From assembly GCA_017475265.1 (NCBI GenBank), contig JAFVFY010000047.1:1-63579 (forward strand): a DNA stretch of 63,579 bases, read 5' to 3'. The position numbers and the translations under genes were made by a program. Origin of the DNA: Prevotella sp. (lineage in GTDB: Bacteria > Bacteroidota > Bacteroidia > Bacteroidales > Bacteroidaceae). Within the stretch, counting starts at the first letter, position 1. Each line of letters starts with the position of its first letter. Shown here piece by piece: positions 27,289 to 56,116 of the stretch. The notes beneath the pieces were generated by a model. It was not told where the DNA came from. It did no database searches and worked only from the letters and a program-made list of their open reading frames with translations.

Positions 27289-27636
27289 ATGAACAAGGTA
27301 ATGCTTATCGGAAATGTGGGTACCGACCCCGAAGTGCGCTACGTAGACCAAGGTGTCGCCGTGGCCCGTTTCCGCTTTGCCACCACCGAGAAGGGGTACA
27401 CTTTGCAGAATGGTACTCAGGTGCCCGACCATACCGACTGGCACAATATTATTATGTGGCGACGGCTGGCAGAAATCGTGGAACGATATGTACATAAGGG
27501 CGACAAGCTCTACATAGAGGGACGGCTACGCTATACTGCCTACGATGACAAGAAGGGACAGCGACAGTATGTCACAGAAATCTGGGCCGACAACATGGAG
27601 ATGCTGACACCAAAGCAGACGACCACCAACTCTTAA
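27289..27636 (+). CDS. ssb: Single-stranded DNA-binding protein
   Basis: 115 aa. An OB fold covers almost the whole protein: MNKVMLIGNVGTDPEVRY, WHNIIMWRRLAE, KGDKLYIEGRLRY, and the final strand YVTEIWADNMEML. The usual disordered tail with an acidic tip (DDDLPF-like), used to recruit repair proteins, is missing; the protein ends KQTTTNS, and the last codons run into a heptamer tract. It may be a second, short SSB paralogue, or the tail may have been lost when the tract formed. Confidence 0.9.
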   Translation: MNKVMLIGNVGTDPEVRYVDQGVAVARFRFATTEKGYTLQNGTQVPDHTDWHNIIMWRRLAEIVERYVHKGDKLYIEGRLRYTAYDDKKGQRQYVTEIWADNMEMLTPKQTTTNS

Positions 27637-27664
27637 CCCTAAACTCTCAACCCTCAACTCTCAA
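27630..27664 (+). repeat. Heptamer tract between ssb and gldE
   Basis: Five heptamers of CTCTCAA/CCCTCAA type that contain the ssb stop codon and reach to 8 nt before the GTG start of gldE. Confidence 0.85.
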
Positions 27665-27671
27665 CTCCCTA

Positions 27672-28991
27672 GTGGACTATCTTCAACAACTGTTCAGCGA
27701 AGTACAACTGAATCCCTTGGGGTTCGGCGAAATCTTTGCTGCTCTTTTGGCGTGCCTGCTTCTCTTCGCCTCTGGCTTTGCCTCTGGGTCTGAGATAGCG
27801 TTCTTCTCACTATCGCCCACCGACCTCAACGAGCTTGACGAGGACAAGAACCCTGCCGACGAGAAGATCGTGAAACTGCGTAAGGACAGCGAGCGCACAC
27901 TGGCCACTATACTTATCACCAACAACCTGGTGAACGTCACCATTATCATGCTGGCCAACTATTTCTTTGCCAGCTGGATAAACTTCGGTCATGCATTATG
28001 GCTGGAGTTCGTCGTGGTCACCATTCTCCTGACTTTCCTTCTCCTGCTCTTTGGTGAGATTATCCCCAAGGTGTACTGCGGACAGCATGCCCTGAAGGTA
28101 TGCCGCCGTTTTGCCTCACCCATCATGGCCCTGAGCAAATTGTTCCGTCCCTTGTCTGCCATCCTCATCAGCACGGGTGCACTGGCAGAGCGAGTGGTGC
28201 AGAAGGAGAACCGAGTGCTCAGTGTCGATGACCTGGAACAGGCTCTGGAGCTGACTGACAAGGAGGAGCTGAAGGACGAGCAGAACATGTTGGAAGGCAT
28301 CGTGCGCTTCGGCGATGAGACCGCAAAGGAAGTGATGACCAGTCGTCAGGACATCGTCGCCCTCGACTTCCACACACCTTTCCCAGAGGTCATGCGTTGC
28401 ATCGTGGAGAACAACTACTCGCGCATACCCGTCTACCAGGACTCCATTGACAACATCCGGGGCATCCTCTACATCAAGGACCTCCTGCCACACTTGGGTA
28501 AGCCCGCCTCCTTCCGGTGGCAGTCACTTATCCGTCCACCTTACTTTGTGCCCGAGACTAAAAAGATTGACGACCTGCTGCGTGAGTTCCAGGAGAACAA
28601 GGTGCACATCGCCATCGTCGTCGACGAGTTTGGCGGTACCAGTGGACTCATCACTCTGGAGGACATCCTCGAAGAGATTGTAGGAGAGATTAATGATGAA
28701 TATGATGAGGAGCAGAAAACATACGTCCGCGTCAATGCCAACACCTACATCTTCGAGGGAAAGACCCTTCTGGCCGACTTCTACAAGATTCTCCACCTCG
28801 ACGATGAAGTCTTTGAGGATGCCGAGGGCGATGCCGACACCCTTGCCGGACTGATGCTAGAATTGAAGGAAGACTTCCCTCGTCTGCACGAAAGGATTGA
28901 TTTCAAGGGCTTTAAGTTTGAGATTGTTGGTATCGATGGCCACCGTATCTCCCGCATCAAGGTGGTGCTCGACAACGCAGATAAGACTTAG
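27672..28991 (+). CDS. gldE: CBS-domain membrane protein GldE (CNNM/CorC-like)
   Basis: 439 aa. N-terminal DUF21/CNNM membrane domain with three to four transmembrane segments (about 15-165), a CBS pair (about 205-325, SRIPVYQDSIDNIRGILYIKDLL and VDEFGGTSGLITLEDILEEIVGEI), then a CorC_HlyC domain (about 345-430). In Flavobacteria GldE supports gliding and type IX secretion; in non-gliding Bacteroidales relatives it probably handles divalent cations or envelope functions. GTG at 27672 is the only good start after the heptamer tract. It converges on the receptor gene, 16 bp between stops. Confidence 0.85.
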   Translation: MDYLQQLFSEVQLNPLGFGEIFAALLACLLLFASGFASGSEIAFFSLSPTDLNELDEDKNPADEKIVKLRKDSERTLATILITNNLVNVTIIMLANYFFASWINFGHALWLEFVVVTILLTFLLLLFGEIIPKVYCGQHALKVCRRFASPIMALSKLFRPLSAILISTGALAERVVQKENRVLSVDDLEQALELTDKEELKDEQNMLEGIVRFGDETAKEVMTSRQDIVALDFHTPFPEVMRCIVENNYSRIPVYQDSIDNIRGILYIKDLLPHLGKPASFRWQSLIRPPYFVPETKKIDDLLREFQENKVHIAIVVDEFGGTSGLITLEDILEEIVGEINDEYDEEQKTYVRVNANTYIFEGKTLLADFYKILHLDDEVFEDAEGDADTLAGLMLELKEDFPRLHERIDFKGFKFEIVGIDGHRISRIKVVLDNADKT

Positions 28992-29007
28992 GTCTGCGAA
29001 GAACCTG

Positions 29008-32000
29008 TTACATTGGTCCTCCGAACCTTCCACCTCCAAAGCCTCCACCACCAAAGCCACCGCCTCCAAAGCCTCCACCTCCGCCGCCTCTACGGCCACC
29101 ACCGCGTCCTTCACGACCGAAGCCTTCGCGTCGGCCTTCACCACGGTTGGCTTCACCACCGCGTCCGCCGAAGAAGTTCATGCGATAGCTCACATGGACC
29201 ATAGCATAACTGGTGATGGCATTCACCTCTTGGTCGCGCCATCCGTTGGCGTTGACGGTGCGGTTGAAGTTGGTCTGCTCGTGCAGGATGTCGTACCACT
29301 GGAGCATGACGGTCATCTTCTTGCCACGCAGGAAACTGTGGGAAAGCTGCGCGTTCCATATCAGCTCATTGGTGTTGAGCGTGGCATCGGTATATCCGCG
29401 TTTGCTGTAGCAGTGGAAGTCGGTTGAGAGGTTTGAGCCCCAAGGGAAGGTGATGCGTGTGTTGCCGCCGTAGTTGTAGTTCCACGTTGTCTGGTTGCGG
29501 CTGGACTGCAGCTCGTTCTCAGTACGGGCGTAGGTGGCGCGACAGTTGAGCGAGACGTTGAGCCATTTGTTGCGGAAGCTGAGCGAGACGTTGGGTGCTA
29601 CGTTGTAGGAATGGGTCACATTGCGGTCGGGGATGGCCGTACGGTTCAGGTTCACGTAGCCAATGTGATGGCTGTAGCTACCGTCGATACCTCCGCTGAA
29701 ATCCCAGCGGTTCAGCGTGTCGAGGCCTATGTTAAACGATACTCCGGCACGGGTGTTCCAGTTGCCGTTGATGTTCTCCGGCCTTGAGATACGTCCGCCC
29801 GTCTCCTCGTTGTAGGTCACGATGTTGCCGATTGAGTTGGTCGTCAGCGACCAGTTGATGTTGGCGCTATAGCTCCAGTGGCGTTGGTTCTTAGGCACCT
29901 GAAAACCAAGGCTGTCCTCCACGAAGGTAGGCTTGCGCTGCTGCTGGTAGTTAGTGCTCAGGTTGTAGGTGAATGAGGGCTTCAGTCCTGGATTACCCAT
30001 TGATATGTTAAGCGGGTTGGTGTCATCGTAGATGTCGAGCAGCTGGGTGATGCTGGGTTGCTGCGTCTGTCCACGCATCTGCACCTGTAGGTTGGAGTAC
30101 TGGGTGAAGCGGTAGCGGAGGTTCAGCGTGGGCGAGAAGTTCGAGACGACGCGCACGGTATCAATGGGAACGCCCAGATACTGCTGGATGTAGTGCGAGC
30201 GTTGCGGCTGGATGGAGACACCCACGTTCATGTTGTATTTCTCGCGGTTCAGGCGCAGCTGTACGTCGATGTTATGTCCGTGTTCGGTGCGTTCGGAGAA
30301 GCGGCTCAGACGGTCGCTGAGATACATCTCCAAGGGGTTGTCCAGATAGCCGAACAGCGAACCCCAGTCGTGGTATTCGTTGAGCGCGTTGCTGAAAGCC
30401 TCGTAGCTGTAGTCAGGGAAGTCGTAGGTCGCGGGGTCATTCTTCTGGTGACTGTAGCTGTAGCGATACATCACCTGCAGGAAGATTCCTTCCTGGCCCA
30501 CCATGCGGCGCCCGCCGCCGTTGCGCCCTCGGCCAAAGGGTCCGCGTCCCTGCTGCTGCAGGGTGTCCTCGGGCGTGACCTTCTTTGGGAAGATATACAG
30601 TGGTTCGGTATATGTTACTCCCAGTGATAGGCTGAAGTTATCGTTCTTGGAATTGGTGTATCGGTTGGTCTGGTAGGTGGAGTCGTTGCCGAAGCGGTCT
30701 TTTGTCTGGTAGAGGTGTACAAAAGAGAGACTACCGTTCTGGTTGTTGCCGTCACGATAGCTAATGTTCGAGCTAATGGTCACATTACGTCCATTGCGGC
30801 CGAAGCGACGGTAGAGCTGTAGCTGCGAGCTGAGACTCTTGTTGTCGCCCTCGCCGAGCGACTTGTTCTGCCGACCGTTCACAATTATATCCTGGAGACT
30901 TGTGGATTGGGAGTTGAGAGAATCTCCTCTACTCATGTTACCAAAATCTAAACTCTCCACTCTAAACTCAGAATCATAGTCGAAGGGGTTGGCGTTGAAC
31001 GAAGCGGAGGTGGAGTAGGAGCGGTTGTCGCTGGTGGAGAAATTGATGTCGGGGCGGAAGGACAGCGTGGTCATCGAGTCGATGGTCCACTGTAGGTTCA
31101 TGTTTCCTGTCCAGTTGTTGTTGCGCGAGTAGCTCTGGCTCACGCTGTTGGAGAACGAACCGCTACGCGTGTTCACGTAGTTCTCGCTGCCCGTGCGGTT
31201 CCAGTTGTCGGCATCGCCACGGTTCCACGTCACACGGCCGCTCAACTTCAGGTCTTTATCATTCTCATAGCTGATGTCGAGTGCCGCAGTCTTTGTCTCG
31301 CGTTGTCCCTGATTGTTGCCTCGCCCACGTCCGCCACGGCCCGAGAAACCTCTGTCGTTCACGTTGTTGGCGTTGCCCATGAAGGTGTAGCGCATGGCTC
31401 CGAAGGGCTTCATGGCCGTCAGTCGTATACCGTAGCGTCCGTCAGTACCGTAGCCCACGTCGGGGTTGGCTTGCAGGCCGTTGCGGGCGCTGCGCTTTGT
31501 GACGAACTCCAAGACGAAGTCATCGTTGCCGTCGTCAACGCCCGTCAGGCGGCTTAGGTCGCTCTTCTCGTCGTAGGCCTTTACCTTGTCAATCACGTAG
31601 CTGGGCAGGTTCTTCATCACCGCGTCGTTGTTGCCAGTCATAAAGTCGCGGCCGTCCAACTTGAATCTCCTCACATTCTTGCCGTTGATGCTGATTTTCC
31701 CGTCGTCGTCAATCTTTGCGCCGGGCAGCACCTCCACCAGGGCCTCGATGACGCTTCCCTCAGGCACGCGGAAGGCATCGGCATTATAGACAACGGTGTC
31801 GTCCTTGATAACCATCTTCGGCACGTTACCCGTGACCACCGCCTCGTCGAGCACCACGGCATTAGGCTCCATGACGATATTGCCCAAGGTGAGATTGCGC
31901 CCTCGCACTTTGGTCAGGCTCCGAAGCACCTCCTTATAGCCCAGGTAGCTGATTTTCAATAGATAATTGCCCTCTCTGGTATTGCTAAAGGTGAAACGTC

Positions 32001-33742: not shown

Positions 33743-34774
33743 ATGGCAAAGAAAGAAGAAAACACAGAGGCCTTGAACCCTCAGCAGGAGAAGCTGAAGG
33801 CGCTTCAGGCTGCTATGTCAAAAATTGAAAAGGACTTTGGCAAGGGAAGCATCATGCGTATGGGCGACGAACAGGTGGAGCATGTGGATGTCATTCCGAC
33901 GGGTTCCATCGGACTGAACGCCGCACTCGGCGTGGGCGGCTACCCCAAGGGACGCATCATAGAAATCTACGGTCCGGAGTCAAGTGGTAAGACCACGCTG
34001 GCCATCCATGCCATTGCCGAGTGTCAGAGGGCTGGTGGCATCGCCGCATTCATCGATGCGGAGCATGCCTTCGACCGCTTCTATGCACAGAAGTTGGGTG
34101 TCGATGTGGACAACCTTTACATCTCGCAGCCCGACAACGGTGAACAGGCGCTGGAGATTGCCGACCAGCTGATTCGCTCGGCTGCCATCGACATCATCGT
34201 TATTGACTCCGTAGCTGCCCTGACACCGAAGAAGGAGATTGAGGGCGACATGGGCGACTCCGCTGTCGGTCTGCATGCCCGCTTGATGAGCCAGGCGCTG
34301 CGCAAGGTCACCTCGACCATCGCCAAGACCAACACCACCTGTATCTTCATCAATCAGTTGCGTGAGAAGATTGGCGTGATGTTCGGCAATCCTGAGACCA
34401 CCACCGGCGGTAATGCCCTGAAGTTCTATGCTTCCGTGCGCCTCGATATCCGTCGTGTGACGAGCATCAAGGACGGCGACAACGTCATCGGCAACCAGGT
34501 GCGCGTGAAGGTGGTGAAGAACAAGGTGGCCCCGCCATTCCGCAAGGCAGAGTTTGAGATTACCTTCGGCGAGGGCATATCGAAGATTGGCGAAATCATC
34601 GACCTCGGTGTGGAGTATGGCATCATCAAGAAGAGCGGCTCGTGGTTCAGCTATCAGGACTCCAAGCTGGCACAGGGACGCGATGCCACCAAACAGTTGC
34701 TGAAGGACAATCCTGAGCTGTGCGAAGAGCTGGAGGCGCAGATTATGCAAGCCATTGGCGACAGCCAAGAGTAA
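33743..34774 (+). CDS. recA: Recombinase RecA
   Basis: 343 aa. Walker A GPESSGKT at 77-84, Walker [11 protein letters not shown], loop 2 region [24 protein letters not shown], standard length. Filament-forming ATPase for strand exchange and SOS induction. It lies only 24 bp after GH105, an unusual neighbour, and no good Bacteroidota promoter is visible in that gap, so either an internal promoter in GH105 or co-transcription is likely. The stop codon lies inside a perfect heptamer tract shared with the stop of the convergent tolC-like gene. Confidence 0.97.
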
Positions 34775-34856
34775 GTCTAGGATCTGAAGTCTAAGGTCTG
34801 AAGTCTGAAGTCTAAAGTCTAAAGTCTAAGGTCTATAGTCAATGTTCTGAGGTCAA
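34773..34856. repeat. Twelve-heptamer tract between recA and the TolC-like gene
   Basis: 84 nt that divide cleanly into twelve heptamers of AAGTCTA/AGGTCTG type, with no gap. Both convergent stop codons (recA TAA at 34772-34774 and the TolC-like TGA at 34853-34855) lie in it. It does not form a terminator hairpin. Confidence 0.88.
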
Positions 34857-36178: not shown

Positions 36179-36181
36179 GGC

Positions 36182-37321: not shown

Positions 37322-37350
37322 TTTTTTCGTTATTTCGAGGTTTTGTTATG

Positions 37351-37430
37351 TCGTTATTTCGTTATCACGTTATCACGTTATTACGAGGCTCCGTTATAAC
37401 GTTATTTCGTTATAACGTTATTTCGCTTAT
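37351..37430. repeat. Octamer tract between permease and adaptor genes
   Basis: About ten octamers of GTTATTTC/GTTATCAC/GTTATAAC type, with one unit replaced by GAGGCTCC. Contains the palindrome CGTTATAACG twice. Same placement as the heptamer tracts but with period 8. Confidence 0.8.
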
Positions 37431-37437: not shown

Positions 37438-38685
37438 TTATTCATCTCTCATGGCGTCGACGGGCTTGATGGCCATGGCGCGGGCGGCGGGGGCGAGGCC
37501 GGCGAGGACGCCCATGGTGGCGATGGCGACGGCAGCCATGATGGCCGTCCAGAAGCCCACCTGGAAGTGGGCGGCGAGGATGCCGTCCTCGGTGTTCGCT
37601 AACTCCAGCATCTGCAGGATGAGGACGGCAAAGAGGATGCCGCTCATGCCGGCTACCAAGGTGAGGACGATGCTCTCCGAGATAATCTGCGAGAGGATGT
37701 TGGTAGGCGTTGCACCGATGGCCCTTCTGATACCAATCTCTGTTGTACGCTCACGCACCGTCACCATCATGATGTTGGAGACACCGATGGCACCTGCCAG
37801 CAATGTGCCCAGACCAACAAGCCAGATGAGGAAGTTGACGCCCTTGAAAAGATTGTCGAGCATCTGGAAGAGCACCTCGGTGTTGAACACCATCGCTCCC
37901 TGCTCGTCGGCAGGGTCTACATAGTGCGCACGGGCGACGGTCTCGCGGATGCGGTCGGTGACGTTCGACATGACCACGCCCGGACGGCCTGTGACGGCAA
38001 TCATGTCGACGGCGTTGCCACGGTTGTAGGCCTGTTGCATGAACGTCAGGGGCAGCACGACGCCTGTTCCGTTCTCACCGCTGAAGCTGATGCCCTCGCC
38101 CATCTGGTAGTCCACGCCGACGATCTGGTAGTAGATGTTGTCGATGCGGATGCGCTTGCCACAAGGGTCGCCGCCACCAGGGAACAGCTCTTTGTAGGTC
38201 TTTTTCTGGATGACGCATACCTTGCGATGGTCGCGGACATCGGCCTCGTCGATATATCGGCCGTAGTACATCTTGGGCTGGTTGATGCGGGCGAACTCAG
38301 GCATGGCACCTGAGACGCCGACGGTGGCCTTGTGGTCGCCATAGTAGGCTGTGCCGCCATTGCTGAAGAGCATGGGGGTGACCACGTCAAGCTCGGGAAC
38401 GGCACGGCGGATGCGCTCCACATCCTTATAGTCCATGTACCAGTAACGGCCCTTGCGGAATCCTTTATATGCCTTGCTCGTGGGTTGTGCCCAGACCATG
38501 GCGGAGTTAGTGGCGAAGCCTGCGAAGTTCTGCTCGAGCAGCTCCTTCAGTCCTGCACCGCCACCCATGAGGGCAACGAGCATGAACACGCCCCAGAAGA
38601 CTCCGAAGCCTGTCAGGAAGGAGCGGCTCTTGTTACGGGTCAGGGTGTCGAGGACTTCGCGGTAGCTGTCTAGGTCTATTCTCAT
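37438..38685 (-). CDS. MacB/FtsX-type ABC permease (first of two, by position)
   Basis: 415 aa. One N-terminal membrane segment (about 22-42), a periplasmic MacB-PCD-like domain (about 45-260), then the FtsX core with three membrane segments (about 280-405; IRRAIGATPTNILSQI is the conserved coupling stretch). Works with the ATPase at 40168 and the sister permease at 38774, probably as a heterodimer. Export of a lipid, peptide or drug with the adaptor and TolC-like channel is likely; the substrate is not predictable. The glycine stretch VALMGGGAG follows the first membrane segment. Confidence 0.88.
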   Translation of the reverse strand: MRIDLDSYREVLDTLTRNKSRSFLTGFGVFWGVFMLVALMGGGAGLKELLEQNFAGFATNSAMVWAQPTSKAYKGFRKGRYWYMDYKDVERIRRAVPELDVVTPMLFSNGGTAYYGDHKATVGVSGAMPEFARINQPKMYYGRYIDEADVRDHRKVCVIQKKTYKELFPGGGDPCGKRIRIDNIYYQIVGVDYQMGEGISFSGENGTGVVLPLTFMQQAYNRGNAVDMIAVTGRPGVVMSNVTDRIRETVARAHYVDPADEQGAMVFNTEVLFQMLDNLFKGVNFLIWLVGLGTLLAGAIGVSNIMMVTVRERTTEIGIRRAIGATPTNILSQIISESIVLTLVAGMSGILFAVLILQMLELANTEDGILAAHFQVGFWTAIMAAVAIATMGVLAGLAPAARAMAIKPVDAMRDE

Positions 38686-38772
38686 GGGTTTTGTGGGGGT
38701 AATGGGTCTGATGGGTTTTATGGGTTTTATGGGTTTAATGGGTCTAATGGGTTTTATGGGGTTAATGGGGTG
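38686..38772. repeat. Nonamer tract between the two permease genes
   Basis: About nine 9-bp units of ATGGGTTTT type (variants GTCTA, TTAAT). It begins directly at the start codon of the downstream permease and ends at the stop of the upstream one, so it fills the whole gap. Confidence 0.85.
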
Positions 38773-40051: not shown

Positions 40052-40066
40052 AACTTCATTTTGAGG

Positions 40067-40198
40067 AGTGAAAGGGGAGTGAATAGGGAGTGAAAGGGGA
40101 GTGAAAGGGACGTTAGTTTTAGTCTTTCATTTTGTGAAACAAGACTATCGTCCCTTTCACTCCTCTTTCACTCCTCCTTCACTTCACTTTCACTCCCT
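40067..40198. repeat. Ladder hairpin from GAGTGAAAGG repeats between ATPase and permease
   Basis: The left side carries about four GGAGTGAAAGGG-like words, the right side about four complementary CCTTTCACTCC words. The best pairing is a perfect 15-bp stem, 40098-40112 with 40149-40163, extended inside by TAGTCTT/AAGACTA. The right arm encodes the C-terminal residues of the ATPase. It could tune ATPase versus permease expression. Confidence 0.8.
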
Positions 40199-43410: not shown

Positions 43411-46400
43411 ATGAATATCCAAGAACTCCTTCGTGAGCGAATACTGATACTCGACGGGGCCATGGGCACCCGTCTGCAGGCTCTGGGTGTGAATCGTGAT
43501 GCTTTCCACAGGGGACGCTTCGCCCAGTGGGACGTGGAACTGACCGGCAACAACGACCTGCTCTGTCTCTCCTCACCCGACGTGGTGGCCACCGTTCACC
43601 GGCTCTATATCGATGCCGGTGCCGACATCATCTCTACCAATACGTTTTCCTCCAACCGCATCAGCCAGCATGAATACCACTGTGAGGACTTTGCCCGTGA
43701 GATGGCCCTGGAGGGTGCGCGGATAGCCCGCCGTGTGGCCGACGAATGTAAGGAGCGTCACGTGTTCGTTGCCGGGTCGATGGGACCGACGGCGAAGTCA
43801 CTTTCCCTGCCGTCGGACATGGGCGACGCCGCACGTCGTGCCGTCAGCTTCGACGAGATGGCTGCGGCCTACGGCGAACAGGCAGAGGCTTTGCTCGAAG
43901 GTGGTGCCGACGTGCTGTTGCTGGAGACCTGCTACGACGCGCTGAACACCAAGGCTGCGCTCTACGCTATCTCGCTACTTGGCGAACGCCTCGGCAGGGA
44001 GATTCCTGTTATGGTCTCCGTAACCATCAACGACCGTAGCGGGCGCACGCTCACAGGACAGACGCTGGAGGCGTTCTACACCAGCATCTCCCACTATCCT
44101 CATCTGCTTAGCTTCGGACTGAACTGCTCCTTTGGCGTGACCGACCTGCGCCCCTTCGTGGAGCAGCTCTCCGCCACCGTTCCTGTATATATCTCCCTGC
44201 ATCCCAATGCCGGACTGCCCAACGAGATGGGCGAGTACGACGAGCTACCAGCCTTCACGGCCAGTCATCTCAGACAGATGGCTGCCGACGGACTGATTAA
44301 TATTGCCGGCGGCTGCTGCGGAACCAACGAAAACCACATTCGTGCCATTAGTGAGGCACTGCGAGGACTGAAGCCTAGACAGGTGCCACAGCTGGATGAC
44401 AACTGTCTGAAGCTTTCTGGGCTGGAGGCTCTGACAATGGGTAGCCTCAAATCTCAAACCTCGAATCTCAAATCTCAAACCTTCACCTCCATCGGCGAAC
44501 GTACTAACGTTGCCGGCTCCCGACGCTTTGCCCGTCTTATCGCCGAGAAGAAATACGACGAGGCCCTTGCCGTGGCCCGTCAGCAGATAGAGGGCGGCGC
44601 CACTATCATTGACATTAACATGGACGATGCCATGCTCGACAGTCGCCGGGAGATGGAGACCTTTGTGCGCCACATCAGCGGCGACCCTGCCGTAGCACGT
44701 ACCGTATTGATGATAGACAGTAGCGACTGGCCGACGGTGCTTGCCGGACTGAAGAACGCACAGGGAAAGTGCATCGTCAATAGCATCAGCTTGAAGGGTG
44801 GCGAGGAGGAGTTCCTGAAGAAAGCCCGTGAGCTACGCCGGTTGGGTGCCGCCGTGGTGGTCATGGCCTTCGACGAAGAGGGACAGGCCACGACTTACGA
44901 ACGTAAGATTGCTATCGCAGAGAGGGCCTATCGGTTGCTTACCGGAGGTTCGGAGGGTTTTGTAAGTCGCTCGGAGGGATTTGTAAGCCGTTCGCAGGGA
45001 TTAATCCCTCCCCAAGACATCATCTTCGACGTGAATATCCTTTCCGTGGGTACGGGTATTGTCGAGCATCAGGACTACGCCCGCGACTTTATCCGTGCCG
45101 TGGCCTGGATTAAGGAGCACCTGCCCATGGCCAAGACCAGCGGTGGCGTGAGCAACCTCTCCTTTGCCTTCCGTGGGAACAATACCGTGCGCGAGGCCAT
45201 GCACTCCGCCTTCCTCTACCACGCCATACGCGCCGGCCTCGACATGGCTATTGTCAATCCCGCCATGCTTCAGGTCTACGACGATATAGAACCTACGCTG
45301 TTGAAAGCTGTCGAGGATGTTATCCTCAACACCGACGACGGCGCCACCGAGCGTCTCATCCATATTATTAATGTAATGGGTGAAGCCTCCAAGCTTTCCA
45401 CCAATACAGTAGGCAGTACTCAGCAGCCGCAAAGCCTGGAAGCTTCATCCACCACGGTGGAGGAGAGACTGAAACGGGCCTTGAGTAGGGGTAATACCGA
45501 GCATCTTTCTGAAGACATCACCGAAGCCTTGCAGCAGTACGAAGACCCCATCCGGGTGATAGAAGGTCCGTTGATGGAGGCTATGGAACACGTGGGAAAG
45601 CTCTTCGGCGAGGGCAAGATGTTCCTGCCGCAGGTGGTGAAGGCCGCCAAGGTGATGCGTGATGCCGTTGTCCTCTTGCAGCCTTATATCGAGGCTGCCA
45701 GCACGGAGCGCACGGAGCGTCCGCTCGTCATTACTGCCACCGCCAACGGCGATGTGCACGACATCGGCAAGAACATCGTTGACATCGTCCTGCGTTGTAA
45801 CGGTTTTGACGTTCACGACCTCGGCGTGATGGTGCCCAACGAGAAGATTCTGGAGGAGACATTACGGTTGAAACCTTGCTTCGTGGGTGTTAGTGGACTC
45901 ATCACTCCGTCATTGAAGGAGATGGAAAAGCTCTGCCAACTGTTCCAACGGGAAGGCCTGACGGTGCCCATCAATGTGGGTGGCGCCACCACGTCGGCCC
46001 TTCATACCGCCGTCAAGCTCGCTCCGCTCTATCCCGGTGGCTGCGTTGTCTATGGCGGCGATGCTTCCCGAACTGCCGTTCTGGCCAAGCGTCTGCAGAT
46101 GAACGCCGCAGAGACCATTACCGAGATAAAGACCGAGCAGCAGGAACTGCGCGAGGCTTACGACGACCATCACAAGACCCCTCTCACGCCCTACGCCGAG
46201 GCCAATGCCAAGGCTCCGCAACTGGAATATGACGACAGCTACCCCACTGTGGAGGATATGGAGAAGGCCGTCGCAGCCCTGCCCTTGCCCTGCCTGTCTG
46301 ATGTTGCCGAGCTGATCGATTGGCGCATGTTTCTTCTCTTCTGGGGATTCAAGGGCGAAACACTCCCACAGCTCCTTGTAAACCCCGAAGCTGCCAAGAC

Positions 46401-48992: not shown

Positions 48993-50801
48993 TTAGGACT
49001 GCAAATTACTGATGATGACGAGCTCAGCCCCGTAGTCGGAGTCGCTGTAGTAGTCCACCCACCCGGTAATCAAGCTCTTGACGGCTTTGTCCTGAAAGGT
49101 GGATTTTATAATCTGTTGCATTATTTCCTCATTACGTTCTGGCAGTATGAAAAAGGAGGTCTCACCGTGGTAGCCGTTGCGCATGGCAATCTCGCCAGTC
49201 ACGATGTTGGGCAGGGTGTAGACAAAGATGGAAGGGCTGGGGAAGAAATCGTCATCGGCGATGGTCTCCAGGTATTTCTTGTCGGCGGCGATGGATGAGG
49301 ACTGGTTGAAGAGGACAATGGCGCGAGAGGCATTGACCATTGAGCATTGACCATTGACCATTGAGCATTGACCATTGACCATTGAGCATTGACCATTGAC
49401 CATTGAGCATTGAGCATTGCCAGTTTTGGCTTTCTCGGCCTGAAGCAGTAGTTCGGAGGCAATGAAGCCCAGGCGGCTAAGGCCGTCCATCTTGTAGAAT
49501 TTGGGGTAGTCGCCGACATAGCGCTTGTAGAGAGAGGTGAGCGTCGGTGGGTCAGGGAGGGGATGACCGTCAACGATGGCCGCCGTGGGGGTAAGGGTGA
49601 CGCGGTGAGTGGGGCATTGAAGGTCGAAGGTCGAAGGTCGAGGGTCAAGGGGCAAATGGCTGTCGACGGTGACGGTGATGGCGGCGTTGCCCCCGCCGAA
49701 ACCGGAAATCATCTTCACGAAAGAATTCTTTTCGGTGGTGGAATTGTCGGTGGTGACCTTTATCTTTCCCGATACGCCCCGCTCCTCGAAGCCTCGGGTG
49801 GCAAGGATGGTGTGGTCGTTCAAGGCAGCGAGGGAGATAACTGTCTCGAGGGTGCCAGCGGCACCAAGTGTGTGGCCATAGTAGCCTTTCAGTCCGTTCA
49901 CAGGGATGTCTGTGAGCCCGGCACGCTCTATGGCCACCGATTCCATCTGGTCGTTGAACATTGTGGCTGTTCCGTGAGCGTTGATAAAGGCGAGGTGTTG
50001 GGTGCTGGGTGCTGCTCCTACAACGGCATTGAGGGCGAGCCATGCCCCTTCGCCGTTCTTCGATGGGGAGCTGATGTGGAAGGCATCGTTGCGGATGAGG
50101 CCATTCCCCATTGACCATTGACCATTGACCATTCTGGAAAGCACCATCGTAGCGGCTGCTTCGCCGAGGTTGAGTCCCATGCGCTCCATGTCGAAGGGAC
50201 GGCAGTCATCTTCTGATACGGCCTTCAACGACTGGAAGCCGGAGACGGTGAAGCGGTTCTGCACGTCGGCTCCGCACACCACGGCATAGTCGTAATGCCC
50301 ACCATCGAGCAATCTCTGAGCAAGGATGATAGCGGCCACACCGGAAATACAGGCGTTGCAGACAACGATGGGTTCCGTGGTAAAGCCGAGGTGGGTGGCG
50401 ATGCGACGTGCTGCCTCGCCGGGGAGAACTTGGGAGCGCAGTCGTCCCGCCTGCATCAAGGCGGACGAGACGTCCGCGCTCCCAGGGAGCAACAGTTCGA
50501 TGTTGGCCTTTGTGGTGCTGAGGATGAAGATGACGTTCTTGGCGGTGATGTCTATGTCGGGCAGCTGTTCCAATGCCTGGCTCACCGAGTGTACGGCCAG
50601 CGACTCAAAACGGGTGAGTCCGTCGATGGCCAAGGCATGTTGTTGTTCATCGGTGAACAGCGAGGCGGTGAACGGCTCTGACAACCCCCATTGTCCCTCG
50701 TAGCGGTGCAGAGCAGAGCAGCCGGACTTGACGGCTTGATAATTCTCCGCTGTCGTCATGCCCAGGGGCGACGTGATGTTGGTTGCTAGGATGTGTGTCA
50801 T
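48993..50801 (-). CDS. Beta-ketoacyl-ACP synthase fused to a second domain, with three repeat insertions
   Basis: 602 aa. KS domain to about 381 with the full triad C151 (CNACISG), H276 (NAHGTAT), H310 (KGYYGHTLGAAG). Residues about 396-602 form a second domain (DYPKFYKMDGLSRLGF, AIVLFNQSSSIAADKKY, IFVYTLPNIVTGEIAMR) which, to my knowledge, is usually a separate protein of about 190 aa next to such KS genes in Bacteroidales. Heptamer tracts encode residues 224-234 (MVNGQWSMGNG), 383-395 (exactly at the joint) and 462-490 (four QCSMVNG units). It probably extends the polyene-like acyl chain. Last gene of the operon; start overlaps the upstream stop (ATGA). Confidence 0.85.
   Translation of the reverse strand: MTHILATNITSPLGMTTAENYQAVKSGCSALHRYEGQWGLSEPFTASLFTDEQQHALAIDGLTRFESLAVHSVSQALEQLPDIDITAKNVIFILSTTKANIELLLPGSADVSSALMQAGRLRSQVLPGEAARRIATHLGFTTEPIVVCNACISGVAAIILAQRLLDGGHYDYAVVCGADVQNRFTVSGFQSLKAVSEDDCRPFDMERMGLNLGEAAATMVLSRMVNGQWSMGNGLIRNDAFHISSPSKNGEGAWLALNAVVGAAPSTQHLAFINAHGTATMFNDQMESVAIERAGLTDIPVNGLKGYYGHTLGAAGTLETVISLAALNDHTILATRGFEERGVSGKIKVTTDNSTTEKNSFVKMISGFGGGNAAITVTVDSHLPLDPRPSTFDLQCPTHRVTLTPTAAIVDGHPLPDPPTLTSLYKRYVGDYPKFYKMDGLSRLGFIASELLLQAEKAKTGNAQCSMVNGQCSMVNGQCSMVNGQCSMVNASRAIVLFNQSSSIAADKKYLETIADDDFFPSPSIFVYTLPNIVTGEIAMRNGYHGETSFFILPERNEEIMQQIIKSTFQDKAVKSLITGWVDYYSDSDYGAELVIISNLQS
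49331..49421 (-). repeat. Thirteen-heptamer tract in fused ketosynthase
   Basis: Twelve CATTGAC/CATTGAG heptamers plus CATTGCC, in the order C,G,C repeated, giving a strict 21-bp higher-order unit and four 7-residue NGQCSMV repeats. Confidence 0.93.
49620..49654 (-). repeat. Five-heptamer tract at the domain joint of fused ketosynthase
   Basis: AAGGTCG x3, AGGGTCA, AGGGGCA. Encodes LPLDPRPSTFDLQ between the KS domain and the second domain. Confidence 0.88.
50102..50136 (-). repeat. Five-heptamer tract in the KS domain
   Basis: CATTCCC, CATTGAC x3, CATTCTG. Same CATTGAC word as the tract 680 bp away in the same gene. Encodes MVNGQWSMGNG in a loop after the conserved GEAAATMVLSR segment. Confidence 0.88.
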
Positions 50802-51204: not shown

Positions 51205-51327
51205 CAACGGATTTTACGGATTACACGGATTATACAGATTATAATTGATTTCACAGATTTCTTCCAGATCCGATGGGGAGAAAATAAATAATCCGTGAAA
51301 ATCCGTGAAATCAGTTTTAATCCGTTG
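51205..51327. repeat. Ladder hairpin of ACGGATT repeats
   Basis: Left side carries ACGGATT-like words (51208-51240), right side the complementary AATCCGT words (51290-51327); the outer arms CAACGGATT and AATCCGTTG pair exactly. It lies in the 180-bp gap inside the ketosynthase operon. Confidence 0.7.
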
Positions 51328-51355
51328 TTTATCCATATTGTCGTGAATAATGTAG

Positions 51356-52357
51356 TTAGGATTTGATATTTGAGAGTTGAGATTTGAGGTTTGAGATTTG
51401 TGTGTAGCTGAAGCAGTTGCCGTCGCTATGGTTCACAACGAGCAGGCGGCTGACGGGCAAAGGTTCGTTGATGCCGTCGCAGCGCATGAGGGCCGGGGCT
51501 TCTCCGTTGCTGACGATGTGGGTTGCGGCATAAAGACCCAGAGCGGAGGAAGAGTAGCCTTCGCCAAAGAGGTGCTTGTAGTGGAGTAGGGGAGCGGAGG
51601 GCAGACGAGCGATGAGGGCGTCATAAATGCTGTCGTTGGACTCGCAGCCATTCGTTCCTATGAGGATGGCATCGGGCTTCATGATTTCGGTTGGGAGGGA
51701 GGTGCCGTAGCTCATCCTGATGTCTTGAAGTTCGCAGAGTGCGCCATCGGCGTCGGTGCTGAGCATCATGGCTACGGAAGTCTCGGTAGCGGGCACCTGC
51801 CCCGTCTGTCCCAGGTATCCAGCACGATGAAGGATGGTGAAGTAGGAAGGGGTCATCTCGTCGTTGCCCGTTACAAGTGCCGTGCTGATATCGCCGAGAC
51901 GCAGTTGGAGGAACGCATCGAGCAAGGCACTGTCAAAAGAAACGGCCTTGTGGCTGTAAGTGCTGTTGTAGCCGTGACAATGGCTGTTGATGGCGATGAG
52001 CGAACTGATGGTGTTGTGGGTGGACTGCATAAAGTTGGTGGGCTTGAGCGTGTCGTCGCCCTCGCGGCACATCTGGTTGAGCAGCAGTTCCGTGTTCTCT
52101 ATGCATCCCAGCCCCGTGCCGGTGATGATGGCGTCGGGCTGTGATATGTCGGCTTTTGACATGGCTTCTGTGGCCGTCACAAGTGCACGCTTCAGCAGTC
52201 GTCCCAGGCGGCGCGACTCCATGGGACTTAGCCAATCCCGGAATGTCGGGTCCAGGCTGCGCACGTATGACCCTTCGAGCGTCTGAGGTGCTGTCATCCA
52301 GCTCTCTGATAAGGGTTGCTGGGCAGAGATTTGCGTGGCCGACTTTATAAAAACCAT
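51356..52357 (-). CDS. Ketosynthase-like chain-length factor, no active cysteine
   Basis: 333 aa. KS N-terminal-type fold (IITGTGLGCIENTELLLNQM, FMQSTHNTISSLIAI); the position where active KS proteins have Cys reads STHNTISS, and no second-half His motifs are present. It should pair with the active KS at 52364 to set chain length, as in type II polyketide and aryl-polyene systems. The C-terminal tail ISNLKSQLSNIKS is encoded by a heptamer tract (GATTTGA type, 51357-51400). Starts 6 bp after the upstream KS stop. Confidence 0.85.
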   Translation of the reverse strand: MVFIKSATQISAQQPLSESWMTAPQTLEGSYVRSLDPTFRDWLSPMESRRLGRLLKRALVTATEAMSKADISQPDAIITGTGLGCIENTELLLNQMCREGDDTLKPTNFMQSTHNTISSLIAINSHCHGYNSTYSHKAVSFDSALLDAFLQLRLGDISTALVTGNDEMTPSYFTILHRAGYLGQTGQVPATETSVAMMLSTDADGALCELQDIRMSYGTSLPTEIMKPDAILIGTNGCESNDSIYDALIARLPSAPLLHYKHLFGEGYSSSALGLYAATHIVSNGEAPALMRCDGINEPLPVSRLLVVNHSDGNCFSYTQISNLKSQLSNIKS

Positions 52358-52363
52358 TTGGAT

Positions 52364-53572
52364 TTACGATTTACGATTTGATAGTATGAGGCTGGTGTCG
52401 TTGCCGCCGAAGCCGAAGGAGTTACACATGACATGGCGGAGTTGCCGTCCTGTCTTGACGTGGGCGACAGGCGTGATGCCATCGGGCATGGGAGTGGTAA
52501 AACCATAGTTGGCGGGGAGGAAAGCGTGTTGCAGGGCCAGCAGACAGATGACGGTCTCTATGGAACCAGAGGCACTGGTGGTGTGGCCTGTCATGCCCTT
52601 GGTCGACGATATGGGTGGTAAGGCGTTGCTGAAGAGACGCTTGATGGCCTGGCTCTCCGAGACATCGTTGTTGGGCGTTCCGGTGCCATGGGCGTTCACG
52701 TAGTTTATGTCCGAAGGTTGCAGGCCAGCCATGCCTAGCGCTTTCTGCATGGCGAGGAAAGCCCCTTCGCCGTTGTCGCTCGAGGCCGTCTGGTGGAAGG
52801 CGTCGCAGGCATTGCCATAACCAGCTAGGCGAGCTAGCGGTTGTGCACCGCGTTGACGGGCATGGTCTTCGGTCTCCAGCACCAGATAGGCAGCACCCTC
52901 GCCGAGGTTCAGTCCGGCGCGGTCGGCGTCGAAGGGTCGGCACTGGTTGGGATCGAGAATCATCAGCGAGTTGAAACCGTTGAGGTGGAAGCGGCTGATG
53001 CACTCCGAGCCTCCCACTACTGCCACGTCGGTCATGCGGCTGCGCAGGAGGTTCGCCCCCATGACAATGGCGTTGGCTGCCGATGAACAGGCCGTGGAGG
53101 AAGTTGTCACCAGGGAGAACACACCAGGGAAATGGCGGGCTATCTGCTCCGTGGTGGAGCCGCAGTCATGGGTGCGTATGTAGTCGTTTCGCGAGTCGTC
53201 GGCAAGGAAGTCCAGATAGTACTGCTCGCTCTTGTCCATACCGCCGACGGTGGTGCCGGAGATGAGGGCGATGCGCCCTGGAGTATCCCCCCTCGGGGGG
53301 ACAGAAAGGGGGGCCGCTTCACTGAGTGCTTCCTTCAAGGCCATCATGCCCATGAGGCTGGTTCTGGTGGTGGGCTCGCTGTCTATGCCCAGCCGCTGTT
53401 TCATCTCCTCGTCGCTGAGTTTCACCTCACCGGCAAGGAAGTCGCGGTGGTCGGTATGCAGGTAGCGCAGCGGTGCTATGCCCGTGTGCTCCTCCAACAG
53501 CGACTGCAGCGTCTCTGTCTTTCCAATACCTATCGCGGAGACAATTCCCGCGCCAGTAATCACGATGTTCAT
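52364..53572 (-). CDS. Beta-ketoacyl-ACP synthase II-like, active triad
   Basis: 402 aa, FabF-like. C162 (SSTACSSA), H295 (NAHGTGTP), H330 (KGMTGHTTSASG), and the C-terminal NSFGFGGND. Condenses malonyl-ACP with the growing chain. Residues 91-98 (VPPRGDTP) come from a GC-rich hairpin repeat in a loop before the IALISGTTVGG strand. The last residues (NRKS) and stop come from a GATTTAC heptamer tract. Starts within the ACP stop (ATGA), so it is coupled to it. Confidence 0.93.
   Translation of the reverse strand: MNIVITGAGIVSAIGIGKTETLQSLLEEHTGIAPLRYLHTDHRDFLAGEVKLSDEEMKQRLGIDSEPTTRTSLMGMMALKEALSEAAPLSVPPRGDTPGRIALISGTTVGGMDKSEQYYLDFLADDSRNDYIRTHDCGSTTEQIARHFPGVFSLVTTSSTACSSAANAIVMGANLLRSRMTDVAVVGGSECISRFHLNGFNSLMILDPNQCRPFDADRAGLNLGEGAAYLVLETEDHARQRGAQPLARLAGYGNACDAFHQTASSDNGEGAFLAMQKALGMAGLQPSDINYVNAHGTGTPNNDVSESQAIKRLFSNALPPISSTKGMTGHTTSASGSIETVICLLALQHAFLPANYGFTTPMPDGITPVAHVKTGRQLRHVMCNSFGFGGNDTSLILSNRKS
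53287..53313 (-). repeat. GC-rich hairpin repeat, copy 5 (in ketosynthase)
   Basis: CCCCCC/GGGGGG arms (53287-53300, 2-nt loop) and a G-rich tail ACAGAAAGGGGGG on the plus strand. Read in frame as VPPRGDTP. The most diverged copy. Confidence 0.6.
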
Positions 53573-54269: not shown

Positions 54270-54273
54270 ATCT

Positions 54274-54315
54274 CTCAACACTTAACACTCAACACTCAAC
54301 TCTCAATTCTCAACG
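54274..54315 (-). repeat. Six-heptamer tract, dehydratase to thioesterase
   Basis: CTCAACA, CTTAACA, CTCAACA, CTCAACT, CTCAATT, CTCAACG. Contains the dehydratase stop codon and its last residues. Confidence 0.87.
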
Positions 54316-54737
54316 CTTACCGCTATTTTCATTTCCGCTGTGCATACGGTCTCTTCGCCCACTTGGACGATGGCGTCTACAAGTGTGAGCTGCATCACCT
54401 CCTCGCGTACAGTGATGGTCGTGGTGAGTTTTTCACCTACATGGGCACTACGGAGGACGACGAGGTTACGTACTGCCCCGATGAAGCCTATGCACACATC
54501 GCGGTGATAGATGTACTTGTTGATGTAGCCCAGGCGTGCTGCGCAGGTCTGTGCGATGTTCTCCACGTAGGCACAGGGGTTGAGCTGTCCGTCCTCCACG
54601 AACATGTTTTCCTCACGCACCTGTAGCGAGGTGGTAGTTGTCTTTTCTTCGTACTGCAACAGGTGGTCTATCAGTACGAAAGGTGGCTGCTGGGGCAGCA
54701 ACGTCGTTACATCAATTTGTTCAAAGTTCATTGTCAT
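54303..54737 (-). CDS. FabZ-like beta-hydroxyacyl-ACP dehydratase (ApeP-like)
   Basis: About 144 aa. LLPQQPPFVLIDHLLQYEE at the N-terminus is typical of FabZ-related hotdog proteins, followed by CAYVENIAQTCAARLGY. The canonical catalytic His of FabZ is not obvious; the ApeP group is similar in this respect (from memory). Start at ATG 54737 or 54731. Both ends of the gene are bounded by CTCAACT tracts. Confidence 0.8.
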   Translation of the reverse strand: MTMNFEQIDVTTLLPQQPPFVLIDHLLQYEEKTTTTSLQVREENMFVEDGQLNPCAYVENIAQTCAARLGYINKYIYHRDVCIGFIGAVRNLVVLRSAHVGEKLTTTITVREEVMQLTLVDAIVQVGEETVCTAEMKIAVSVEN

Positions 54738-54739
54738 TT

Positions 54740-54804
<65 letters not shown>

Positions 54805-54807
54805 CTT

Positions 54808-55701
54808 CTAGTCCCAGAACTCATAGTAGTTATACCATTGTTCGGGGTACTTCTTCAGTATCGTTTCCATCTCCGTGGCAAAGGCCTGGGCCAGTGCGGC
54901 TGTGCGCTCGTTTCTCTTCAGTTGTGGGTCAGCTTGTACGGGGCGTACATAGACCGTATAGCGGTAGGCCGACTCTTTCATCACGAAGATGGCGATGGTC
55001 TTTGCCTCACGTTGCGTGGCCAGGGCGAAGGGGCCTAGCGGGAGGTTTGCCTTCGCTCCCAGCAGCTGGCACTCCACGGTTCGCGTTGACCCGAATATCC
55101 GGTCGGCAGGGATGCTCACTATCTGTCCGTTGGCCAGTGCGTTGTTCATTTCGAAGATGTGGCTCATGTCGTCGCTCGTGGTTATCATCCTGATGTTGTG
55201 CATGGCGAACAACCTTCTTCGGTTTTCCATAACCGATTGCGTCTCACCGCCATAGACCAATGTGTTGTAGGGTTTCTGGGTAGCAGTGAAGGTGTAGCCA
55301 GCCATCTCGTAGCAGCCCACGTGGCAGCTCAGAATGACGAAGCCCTCGTCGCCGTTGCTCAGTTCGGTGAACAGCTCGTTGTTCACCCTGTCGAGCTGGA
55401 ACTTGATGCCGGCATACATTGCGAAGCGGTCGAGCACTACCTGTCCGAAACGGTAGTGGTTGAGGTAGGCCATGCGAAACGACTTCCATCGTCCGAAGCC
55501 TTGCCTCTGGCGCATGTAGTGCCAGATGGCCATGAATGCCTTACGGCGCAGTACGATATAGAACGGAACCACGAAAACAGCCATCACAGCATACATAGGG
55601 CGCAAACCCATGAACCGGAGTACGCTTATCAGCGCACGATGCATCCCCTGCGTACCGTCAGTACCGTGAACTATCGACTGTGAACTCTCAGCACTCAACA
55701 C
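54808..55701 (-). CDS. LpxL/HtrB-like lysophospholipid acyltransferase
   Basis: 297 aa. H127-x4-E132 (CHVGCYEM) is the acyltransferase signature; one N-terminal membrane segment (about 34-52). Would move the finished acyl chain onto a lipid acceptor, as the acyltransferases of aryl-polyene clusters are thought to do. The start is unusual: the frame opens with GTG/TTG codons inside a CTCAACT tract, and the first ATG (55644) would drop residues HGTDGTQG that look conserved in this family. So a repeat-derived start codon is likely. Confidence 0.83.
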   Translation of the reverse strand: MLSAESSQSIVHGTDGTQGMHRALISVLRFMGLRPMYAVMAVFVVPFYIVLRRKAFMAIWHYMRQRQGFGRWKSFRMAYLNHYRFGQVVLDRFAMYAGIKFQLDRVNNELFTELSNGDEGFVILSCHVGCYEMAGYTFTATQKPYNTLVYGGETQSVMENRRRLFAMHNIRMITTSDDMSHIFEMNNALANGQIVSIPADRIFGSTRTVECQLLGAKANLPLGPFALATQREAKTIAIFVMKESAYRYTVYVRPVQADPQLKRNERTAALAQAFATEMETILKKYPEQWYNYYEFWD

Positions 55702-55788
55702 TCAACTCTAAACTCTCAACTCTCAACTCTCAACACTCAACTCTTAACCCTCAACTCTTAACCCTCAACCCTCAACTCTTAACCCTGC
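55686..55788 (-). repeat. CTCAACT-type heptamer tract, ACP to acyltransferase
   Basis: About fourteen heptamers (CTCAACA, CTCAACT, CTCTTAA, CCCTCAA variants). Includes the ACP stop region and the likely GTG start of the acyltransferase. Confidence 0.88.
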
Positions 55789-56017
55789 TCTCGATATAGT
55801 CGCAGAACTGGTGGAGCGTGGTCACTCCAGCCATGTCTTCGGGCTTGATCTTGAATCCGAACTTACGCTCGACAATCACCACGATGTCCACGAAGTCGAG
55901 GCTGTCGATGCCTAGGTCATCCTTGAGCAGGGCCTCGTCGCTGATTTTCTCTTCGTCAATCTCCAGGTCGTCGACGAGGAATTCCCTTACCTTCTCTTCA
56001 ATTTCTGTTCTTGTCAT
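55772..56017 (-). CDS. Acyl carrier protein (first of two)
   Basis: 81 aa. Phosphopantetheine serine S39 in LGIDSLDFVDIVV. Acidic helical protein of normal length. Differs clearly from the second ACP of the operon, so the two may serve different steps (priming versus elongation, inference). The last codons (SRVKS) lie in the heptamer tract. Confidence 0.93.
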   Translation of the reverse strand: MTRTEIEEKVREFLVDDLEIDEEKISDEALLKDDLGIDSLDFVDIVVIVERKFGFKIKPEDMAGVTTLHQFCDYIESRVKS

Positions 56018-56025
56018 CTGTATTT

Positions 56026-56116
56026 ATTTACGATTTACGATTTTACGATTTACGATTTGTTACCACTGCGGTAGCAAATTATTCACTCATCACTCTTCAC
56101 TCATCACTCTTCACTA
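56026..56116 (-). repeat. GATTTAC and CATCACT tracts, methyltransferase to ACP
   Basis: Two tracts with different words, 56026-56058 (GATTTAC) and 56082-56116 (CTCATCACTCTTCA), separated by unrelated DNA. The second contains the methyltransferase stop and its last residues VKSDE. Confidence 0.82.

What the first reader, a model, noticed from the sequence alone, without database searches (positions are those of the whole stretch)
27630..56116. Tandem tracts conserved in period (7 nt) but not in sequence
Many gaps, gene ends and some coding stretches consist of perfect or near-perfect heptamers, and the heptamer differs between tracts: CTCTCAA (27630), AAGTCTA (34773), CTCAAAT (44446), CATTGAC (49331, 50102), AAGGTCG (49620), CTCAACT (54274, 54742, 55686), GATTTAC (56026), TTATTGT (4816-14056). 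Each strand of most tracts lacks or nearly lacks one base. What is shared is the period, not the word, which ordinary duplication of one element does not give. A process that makes or expands 7-nt steps (slippage, or a templated polymerase) would explain it. The tracts hold start and stop codons, so they reshape gene ends. I know of no named element that fits.
Basis: partly seen in the sequence, partly recalled or inferred. Interest (0 to 1): 0.8.

Follow-up and report, generated by a model that had tools for sequence, protein, structure and literature searches.

The report
Species-specific seven-base repeat tracts in genes
This gut-type bacterium and several relatives carry many short stretches made of a repeated seven-letter DNA word, in gene gaps and also inside conserved enzyme genes; the period of seven stays the same while the word can differ between species at the same place, which looks like a new form of a repeat class already known in bacteria.

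Summary
The tracts are real. A 374 kb sample of the window's genome holds 68 approximate tandem tracts at period 7, against 2, 13 and 18 at periods 6, 8 and 9, and none in shuffled DNA. Eighty loci of related MAGs peak at 7 too. Two sub-claims fail: lack of one base is not clearly above chance, and words do recur within a genome. Genomes differ in their word pools. Of 91 tracts, 53 lie at ORF ends or gaps and 38 inside ORFs, in frame. Four conserved proteins carry them where solved relatives have a gap or break. Most orthologues have no tract at these loops; of 7 seen in relatives, 5 use a different heptamer. On average, in-ORF tracts show a 21-nt higher-order period that gap tracts lack, a mark of translation. 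Some come as inverted pairs and fold as hairpins. Best reading: known heptanucleotide simple repeats, slippage-driven, re-copied within each genome and sieved by reading frame. Several tract-rich drafts lack reverse transcriptase or Y1 transposase matches. New variant of a known kind.

The parts
4736..4883 (.). CCAATAA tract plus inverted TGTTTAT tract around the 5' end of the minus-strand SusD-family gene 2935-4818; the first encodes TVIGYCLLVIG, by eye the core of a signal peptide
8144..8263 (.). same inverted pair at the 5' end of the TonB-dependent receptor gene 4885-8226
12128..12241 (.). same inverted pair at the 5' end of the fasciclin-domain gene 10117-12210
13942..14057 (.). same inverted pair at the 5' end of the SusD-family gene 12243-14024
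27627..27667 (.). CTCAACT/CTCAACC tract at the junction of the SSB gene (27289-27636) and the CNNM/CBS gene (27672-28991)
34773..34843 (.). TCTAAAG/TCTGAAG tract after the recA stop; none of 28 relatives' recA 3' flanks has it, one (L050) has a CTCAACA-type tract there
44446..44482 (+). in-frame CTCAAAT tract in metH, read SLKSQTSNLKSQT, between the homocysteine- and pterin-binding domains
49331..49419 (-). in-frame TCAATGG/TCAATGC tract in the ketoacyl synthase-like gene 48993-50801; 21-nt higher-order period; modelled with pLDDT below 50 at residues 462-489
49619..49655 (-). in-frame GAAGGTC tract (read RPSTFDL) in the same gene; L097 and L098 have an AACCCTC tract in this loop
50101..50133 (-). 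in-frame CCATTGA-family tract (read MVNGQWSMGNG) in the same gene, at a modelled strand-turn-strand, running into the second strand
51361..51400 (.). ATTTGAG tract at the 3' end of gene 51356-52357
52361..52379 (.). GATTTAC tract at the junction of two ketoacyl synthase genes
54274..54324 (.). CTCAACA/CTCAACT tract filling the junction 54281/54303; L103 has about 15 nt of other sequence there
54740..54806 (.). CTCAACT tract filling the junction 54746/54808; none in the 8 orthologous junctions printed
55687..55786 (.). CTCAACT tract between the acyl-carrier gene (PP-binding) and 54808-55701; L103 has a CACTCTT tract in the same gap
56026..56058 (.). GATTTAC tract just upstream of the acyl-carrier gene
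56083..56115 (.). TCACTCA/TCACTCT tract at the 3' end of gene 56097-57440

Best explanation
The tracts belong to a genome-wide population of heptanucleotide tandem repeats (long simple sequence repeats) in a Prevotella-like Bacteroidales genome. Shown: strong period-7 excess in samples of this and related species; word pools that differ between genomes; concentration at gene ends, gaps and variable loops; in-frame presence inside conserved genes; different words at the same site in some relatives and in one paralogue pair; a 21-nt higher order, on average, only in in-ORF tracts. Inferred: replication slippage in 7-nt steps grows and shrinks tracts, and ectopic template switching or recombination between tracts copies a genome's current words to other weakly constrained sites. 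Occasional fold-back copying makes inverted arms. Selection then removes tracts that break reading frames. Because 7 is coprime to 3, a heptamer array encodes the same heptapeptide repeat in whichever frame it is read, so a stop-free word can enter any frame and only total length matters. I infer no dedicated function for most tracts; some are co-opted as signal-peptide cores, linkers, spacers or stop-codon donors.
For: Period peak. Word pools, as overlapping 20-mer hits per genome: CTCAACT G000 64, G035 45, G018 22, G033 0, G034 0; CTCACCT G035 23, G033 22, G018 18, G009 16, G000 0; CTCTCCT G034 44, G022 16, G000 0. Heptad inserts in relatives at the four loops examined: 7, by tract score in 28, 28, 29 and 27 loci. 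Five have a word differing from ours (G018 ThrC twice, G022 RsmH, G034 and G033 MetH); two share ours (G035 ThrC site 2, G018 RsmH). The words of G018 ThrC, G034 and G033 MetH and G035 ThrC are abundant in the same genome (3 of G018's 18 hits and 1 of G034's 44 are these inserts themselves). Paralogues L182 and L208, with 96% and 82% identical flanks, hold different words at one site. A gap with another word in L103 and after recA in L050. Frame: lag-21 identity excess in ORF tracts versus gap tracts, permutation p 0.00025 (38 and 35 tracts); 0.0014 without stop-bearing words (33 and 35). Of 130 in-ORF tracts, unbiased and targeted together, the sense word is stop-free in 111 while the antisense word has a stop in 104. 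Solved-structure alignments put tracts between conserved blocks of ThrC, an ABC transporter, MetH and RsmH.
Against: Slippage and template switching were not observed: no pair of strains of one species was available. Slippage alone does not explain words shared between loci or inverted arms (inverted 9-mer within 120 nt for 17 of 91 unbiased tracts versus 4 of 91 in each of two controls). The in-ORF set is defined by an open frame, so absence of in-frame stops is partly circular. The lag-21 excess is an average: 5 of 38 in-ORF tracts go the other way and 7 of 35 gap tracts show it. Two relatives' inserts share our word and may be inherited. Word sharing is statistical: 56% of own pairs differ at 3 or more positions. 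Low model confidence is not special to the tract: 145 of 602 residues are below 50.
Confidence: 0.6

Rival explanations
1. The in-gene tracts are a mobile, protein-coding palindromic element, like Rickettsia palindromic elements: heptad arms around a variable loop, inserted in frame by a transposition-like process; single tracts are decayed halves.
For: Dispersed similar peptides with inverted arms: family B [IDHSPLT]n-loop-[NGQWSMV]n in L181, L189, L190, L194, L198, L205, L209; family A EFRVESSELRDV-loop-KVKSLNSQLSTLN in L016, L167, L172, L187. Six examples chosen for their arms fold with z -6.05 to -9.35.
Against: 74 of 91 unbiased tracts have no inverted 9-mer within 120 nt. Arm length and loop sequence vary; no target-site duplication was looked for. 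The family A core pattern gives 8 hits at 6 places in the genome with 1 mismatch allowed. At the KS loops L103 and others hold unrelated sequence, in part of similar length, more like overwriting than insertion of a unit.
Confidence: 0.2
2. The tracts are functional sites (binding or translation-control sequences kept by selection at gene starts and ends), as proposed for TAACTGA repeats in Beggiatoaceae.
For: Among 53 end/gap tracts, 17 tract-ORF pairs have the ORF's first ATG 0-25 nt downstream of the tract and 16 tracts hold a stop codon (no control was run for the ATG count). Precedent: abstract and passages of PMC4679880.
Against: Words and tract presence differ between relatives at the same gap; 38 of 91 tracts lie inside ORFs.
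Confidence: 0.1
3. A templated polymerase, such as a telomerase-like or retron-like reverse transcriptase, writes heptads.
For: Fixed step with changing word; G000 has 4 PF00078 matches.
Against: PF00078 matches in 16 of 40 genomes, none in tract-rich drafts G018, G022, G033, G035; many words per genome would need many templates.
Confidence: 0.04
4. Assembly or binning artefact of a metagenome-assembled genome.
For: A contig ends in a tract (C11) and the window starts in a 22-mer array.
Against: Tracts sit inside intact reading frames and recur in many separate genomes, including the 3-contig G010.
Confidence: 0.02

Closest known systems
Heptanucleotide long simple sequence repeats (Mrazek et al. 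2007, known here only as cited in PMC4679880 and PMC4692102)
   Same: Unit of 7 nt the commonest long repeat class in most genomes rich in them; slippage proposed, with 7 nt as a polymerase contact length.
   Different: Here a large share lies inside conserved genes, in frame; words can differ between species at the same site; inverted pairs; 21-nt higher order in genes.
Cyanobacterial tandem heptamers (Calothrix, mentioned in PMC4692102; the name STRR is recalled) and GGGAATC / GGGGACT-type repeats of Xanthomonas and Nostoc (PMC4692102, passages)
   Same: Heptamers dispersed through the genome, preferentially near start and stop codons.
   Different: [quoted passage not shown] ours are mostly not G-run words and are often coding.
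TAACTGA repeats of Beggiatoaceae (PMC4679880, passages and introduction)
   Same: Heptamer direct repeats just upstream of start codons.
   Different: One word, with related heptamers rare as repeats; ours are many words and also intragenic.
Rickettsia palindromic elements (PMC10969869, passages)
   Same: Dispersed palindromes inserted in frame into unrelated metabolic genes.
   Different: RPEs are about 150 bp with a conserved peptide; ours have variable-length heptad arms, variable loops, and many single-armed tracts.
PARCELs (PMC2996958, abstract)
   Same: Palindromic repeat DNA that is coding.
   Different: 25-residue amphipathic domains in ORFs lacking assigned functions; ours are 7-nt units in conserved enzymes.

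Membership tests
Heptanucleotide long simple sequence repeats | Tandem arrays of a 7-nt unit longer than expected by chance | tested here: met
Heptanucleotide long simple sequence repeats | Heptanucleotides more abundant than neighbouring unit lengths | tested here: met
   68 versus 2, 13, 18 at 6, 8, 9; 138 versus 12, 50, 38 in 80 relatives' loci
Heptanucleotide long simple sequence repeats | Length change by slippage in unit steps | not testable with these tools
   no strains of one species; indirect 21-nt signature only
Cyanobacterial-type dispersed heptamer families | Same heptamer dispersed at many loci of one genome | tested here: met
   CTCAACT 64 and CCATTGA 49 overlapping 20-mer hits over many contigs
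Rickettsia palindromic elements | In-frame presence in unrelated protein genes, absent from homologues | tested here: met
Rickettsia palindromic elements | Unit of roughly constant length with conserved sequence and palindromic structure | tested here: not met
   inverted partner in 17 of 91 unbiased tracts; loops and arm lengths vary
REP/RAYT elements | Associated Y1 transposase in genomes that carry them | tested here: inconclusive
   PF01797 matches in 23 of 40 genomes, own included; none in tract-rich draft G035
Templated reverse-transcriptase addition | Reverse transcriptase in tract-rich genomes | tested here: inconclusive
   own genome has 4 matches; none in drafts G018, G022, G033, G035

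The most novel reading that the evidence does not exclude
A dedicated or biased DNA-copying activity in these Bacteroidales keeps rewriting weakly constrained DNA, including protein loops and signal peptides, as arrays of the species' current heptamer words, partly as palindromes, so that loops of conserved enzymes are recoded with species-specific heptapeptide repeats while the 7-nt step stays fixed.
Probability: 0.15. Interest if true: 0.85.

Novelty: new variant of a known kind. Interest (0 to 1): 0.6.

Why it matters
It makes an old question, why bacterial long repeats prefer seven bases, testable in one clade with several word pools and orthologous sites. It also shows repeat DNA entering conserved enzymes as in-frame peptides more than once, a route by which protein loops, linkers and signal peptides could change quickly, and a possible source of assembly breaks and mis-annotation in gut metagenome-assembled genomes.

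Tried and rejected
Lack of one base as a defining trait: not clearly above an AT-matched control (an unmatched control gave 52% against 59 of 91). Reverse transcriptase and Y1 transposase as drivers: missing from some tract-rich drafts, no formal correlation computed. Synteny of the window with sampled relatives: only recA, short pieces and one tract align, so a gene-by-gene comparison was used. Bypassing or splicing of the in-gene tracts: disfavoured, because where the sense word carries a stop (19 of 130) the arrays carry changes that leave the frame open, and because of the 21-nt signature; ORF selection makes the first point partly circular. An 8-mer count beside tracts gave GC-rich motifs such as GCGCAGCC and a CTCGGCC..GGACGCTTGC unit, not explained further. 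My first look after recA printed the wrong side for loci on the minus strand; one search repeated it with each locus turned, for 28 of 29. Literature searches for heptamer tracts or palindromic coding elements in Prevotella or Bacteroidetes (listings only, 20 of 127 shown) showed no such description; the library is open-access only. Searches were general searches. The structure model of the ketoacyl synthase-like protein (13 sequences, mean pLDDT 71.6) was used only for loop positions; no fold search was run. Signal peptides were read by eye. Whether the copying is by slippage, template switching or recombination was not separable here.
Full report
What is there. Counting exact runs, the window has 18 at period 7 and 4, 2 and 0 at periods 8, 9 and 6; shuffles give about 0.03. 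In 20 further loci of the same genome (373,715 bp; contig starts or fixed inner positions, on contigs mostly known from earlier hits, one of which, L026, covered a known hit) there are 54 exact period-7 arrays against 11 and 10 at periods 8 and 9, and 68 approximate tracts against 2, 13 and 18 at periods 6, 8 and 9, with none in a Markov shuffle for periods 5-12. Eighty loci of named MAGs, mostly Prevotella and other Bacteroidales from herbivore guts, show 138 period-7 tracts against 12, 50 and 38 at 6, 8 and 9; 46 of the 80 loci have at least one. So smaller families at other periods exist too.

Words. The CTCAACT 20-mer has 64 overlapping hits in this genome and occurs in 11 of 60 genomes, own included, all of the same genus; 0 of 24 from other families. 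CCATTGA has 49 hits here and occurs in 5 of 60, own included. CTCACCT is absent here but has 23, 22, 18 and 16 hits in G035, G033, G018 and G009 (9 of 40 genomes). CTCTCCT is absent here but has 44 hits in G034 and 16 in G022 (3 of 40). So genomes differ in their pools, with overlap (G018 and G035 have both CTCAACT and CTCACCT). Identical consensus words make up 4.65% of 3676 pairs from different loci of this genome, 1.0% of 12558 pairs with the 80 loci of other species and 0.19% of random-word pairs; among the 80 loci, 7.1% of 281 same-locus pairs and 1.35% of 9172 different-locus pairs. Of 40 tracts of 35 nt or more, 22 vary in only one or two heptad columns.

Place. Of 91 tracts in the sample plus window, 38 are internal to an ORF, 16 at an ORF end, 30 straddle an ORF end and 7 are in gaps, while ORFs cover 92.7% of bases (ORFs are stop-to-stop, 100 codons or more, not gene calls). 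Sixteen of the 91 contain an ORF's stop codon, against 2.6% of random placements. In the window, four minus-strand genes (two SusD-family, one TonB-dependent receptor, one fasciclin) share ITVIGYCLLVIG near the N terminus, by eye a signal-peptide core, written by a CCAATAA-type tract with an inverted tract upstream.

In genes. Because 7 is coprime to 3, a heptamer array gives one heptapeptide whichever frame is used: CTCAACT gives STLNSQL and TCAATGG gives SMVNGQW. In 130 in-ORF tracts of this genome, unbiased and targeted, the sense word is stop-free in 111 and the antisense word has a stop in 104; in the other 19 the arrays carry changes that keep the frame open. Since ORFs were chosen as open, this is partly circular. 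A less circular sign: in tracts of 42 nt or more, mean identity at lag 21 exceeds that at lags 7 and 14 inside ORFs but not in gaps (38 and 35 tracts, permutation p 0.00025; p 0.0014 after dropping stop-bearing words, 33 and 35). It is an average; 5 of 38 and 7 of 35 go against it. Alignments to solved structures put the tracts between conserved blocks of threonine synthase (two sites), an ABC transporter related to MsbA, MetH and RsmH. In the model of the ketoacyl synthase-like protein 48993-50801, the 89-nt tract falls on residues with pLDDT below 50, as do other segments (145 of 602 residues); the 50101-50133 tract lies at a strand-turn-strand and runs into the second strand.

Same site, other word. 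Among same-genus orthologues, tract scoring finds heptad tracts at ThrC site 1 in 1 of 28, ThrC site 2 in 2 of 28, RsmH in 2 of 29 and MetH in 2 of 27 loci (alignments; DNA). Many of the MetH loci are only about 52% identical. Of these 7, 5 have a word differing from ours (G018 ThrC twice with CTCACCT, G022 RsmH, G034 MetH with CTCTCCT, G033 MetH with CTCACCT some residues upstream of our site). Two share ours (G035 ThrC site 2, G018 RsmH) and could be inherited. The ketoacyl synthase loop at window 49619-49655 (GAAGGTC) is AACCCTC in L097 and L098, a different peptide repeat in L087, and non-repeat in L103. The gap before 54808-55701 is CTCAACT here and CACTCTT in L103; the junction 54746/54808 has a 67-nt tract here and none in the 8 relatives printed, out of 75 loci with the gene. 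Paralogues L182 and L208, with flanks 96% and 82% identical, hold different words at the same site. After recA, none of 28 relatives has our tract and one has a CTCAACA-type tract; G034, whose RecA is 96% identical, has none.

Inverted arms. A 9-mer of inverted sequence within 120 nt was found for 17 of 91 unbiased tracts (controls 4 and 4; direct 14) and 27 of 136 targeted tracts (controls 6 and 3; direct 16) (both members of a pair count). By class, 8 of 38 internal and 9 of 53 other tracts. Several in-gene pairs flank a short variable loop coding for mostly hydrophilic residues, by eye. Six examples chosen for their arms fold as hairpins with z from -6.05 to -9.35; two single-arm window tracts give -2.67 and 0.68. 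This resembles Rickettsia palindromic elements in effect, but a unit of constant length is lacking.

How it most likely works. Shown: period bias, word pools, site preference, in-frame occurrence, word differences at shared sites. Inferred: 7-nt slippage makes and resizes tracts; copying from existing tracts (template switching or ectopic recombination) gives each genome its own words and, by fold-back, inverted arms; purifying selection leaves tracts at gene ends and tolerant loops, in stop-free orientation and frame-neutral length. Reverse transcriptase and Y1 transposase matches are missing from several tract-rich drafts.

Relation to known things. Heptanucleotides as the commonest long-repeat class in most genomes, and a polymerase-contact explanation for the seven, are in print (Mrazek et al. 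2007, seen only as cited in PMC4679880, introduction read, and in passages of PMC4692102). Tandem heptamers in Calothrix are mentioned in the latter; the name STRR is from memory. Rickettsia elements were read in passages of PMC10969869, PARCELs in the abstract of PMC2996958. PMC4060949 (passages) reports longer repeats as generally normal or weakly over-represented. Searches for the phenomenon in Prevotella or Bacteroidetes listed no such paper. I therefore file it as a new variant of the heptanucleotide repeat class.

Noticed in passing
1-89: Four perfect copies of a 22-nt unit (AAAGATATGGTCTTGTACTACA) at the very start of the contig; three arrays of this unit were counted in the own-genome sample. 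Contig C11 ends in a heptamer tract.
   Followed up: no
L164, L171, L179, L183; also L280 (G018): A dispersed unit of roughly 35 nt (CCGCTCGGCC..GGACGCTTGC..) lies next to heptamer tracts in several loci and also in the RsmH insert of another species.
   Followed up: partly
40065-40109 and 40154-40196: Period-11 arrays GGAGTGAAAGG and CTTTCACTCCT, an inverted pair in and beside the gap between a MacB-like and an ABC ATPase gene.
   Followed up: no
37341-37430; 38684-38770; 51207-51310: Other short-period arrays: period 8/16 around GTTATAACG, period 9 ATGGGTTTA, and AATCCGTGAA-like units of period 9-10.
   Followed up: no
G008, G009, G010: Strand and position oddities: CTCAACT hits in G008 are 19 of 19 on minus, CTCACCT hits in G009 15 of 16 on minus, and 16 of 23 CTCAACT hits in G010 lie at C3:1599737-1682814.
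   Followed up: no
57311-61243: One 1310-aa ORF matches GH97 (N, catalytic and C parts) followed by GH31 domains, an apparent fusion.
   Followed up: no
44950-45002: MetH also carries a 21-nt repeat (2.5 copies, read GFVSRSE) where the solved relative has a gap.
   Followed up: no
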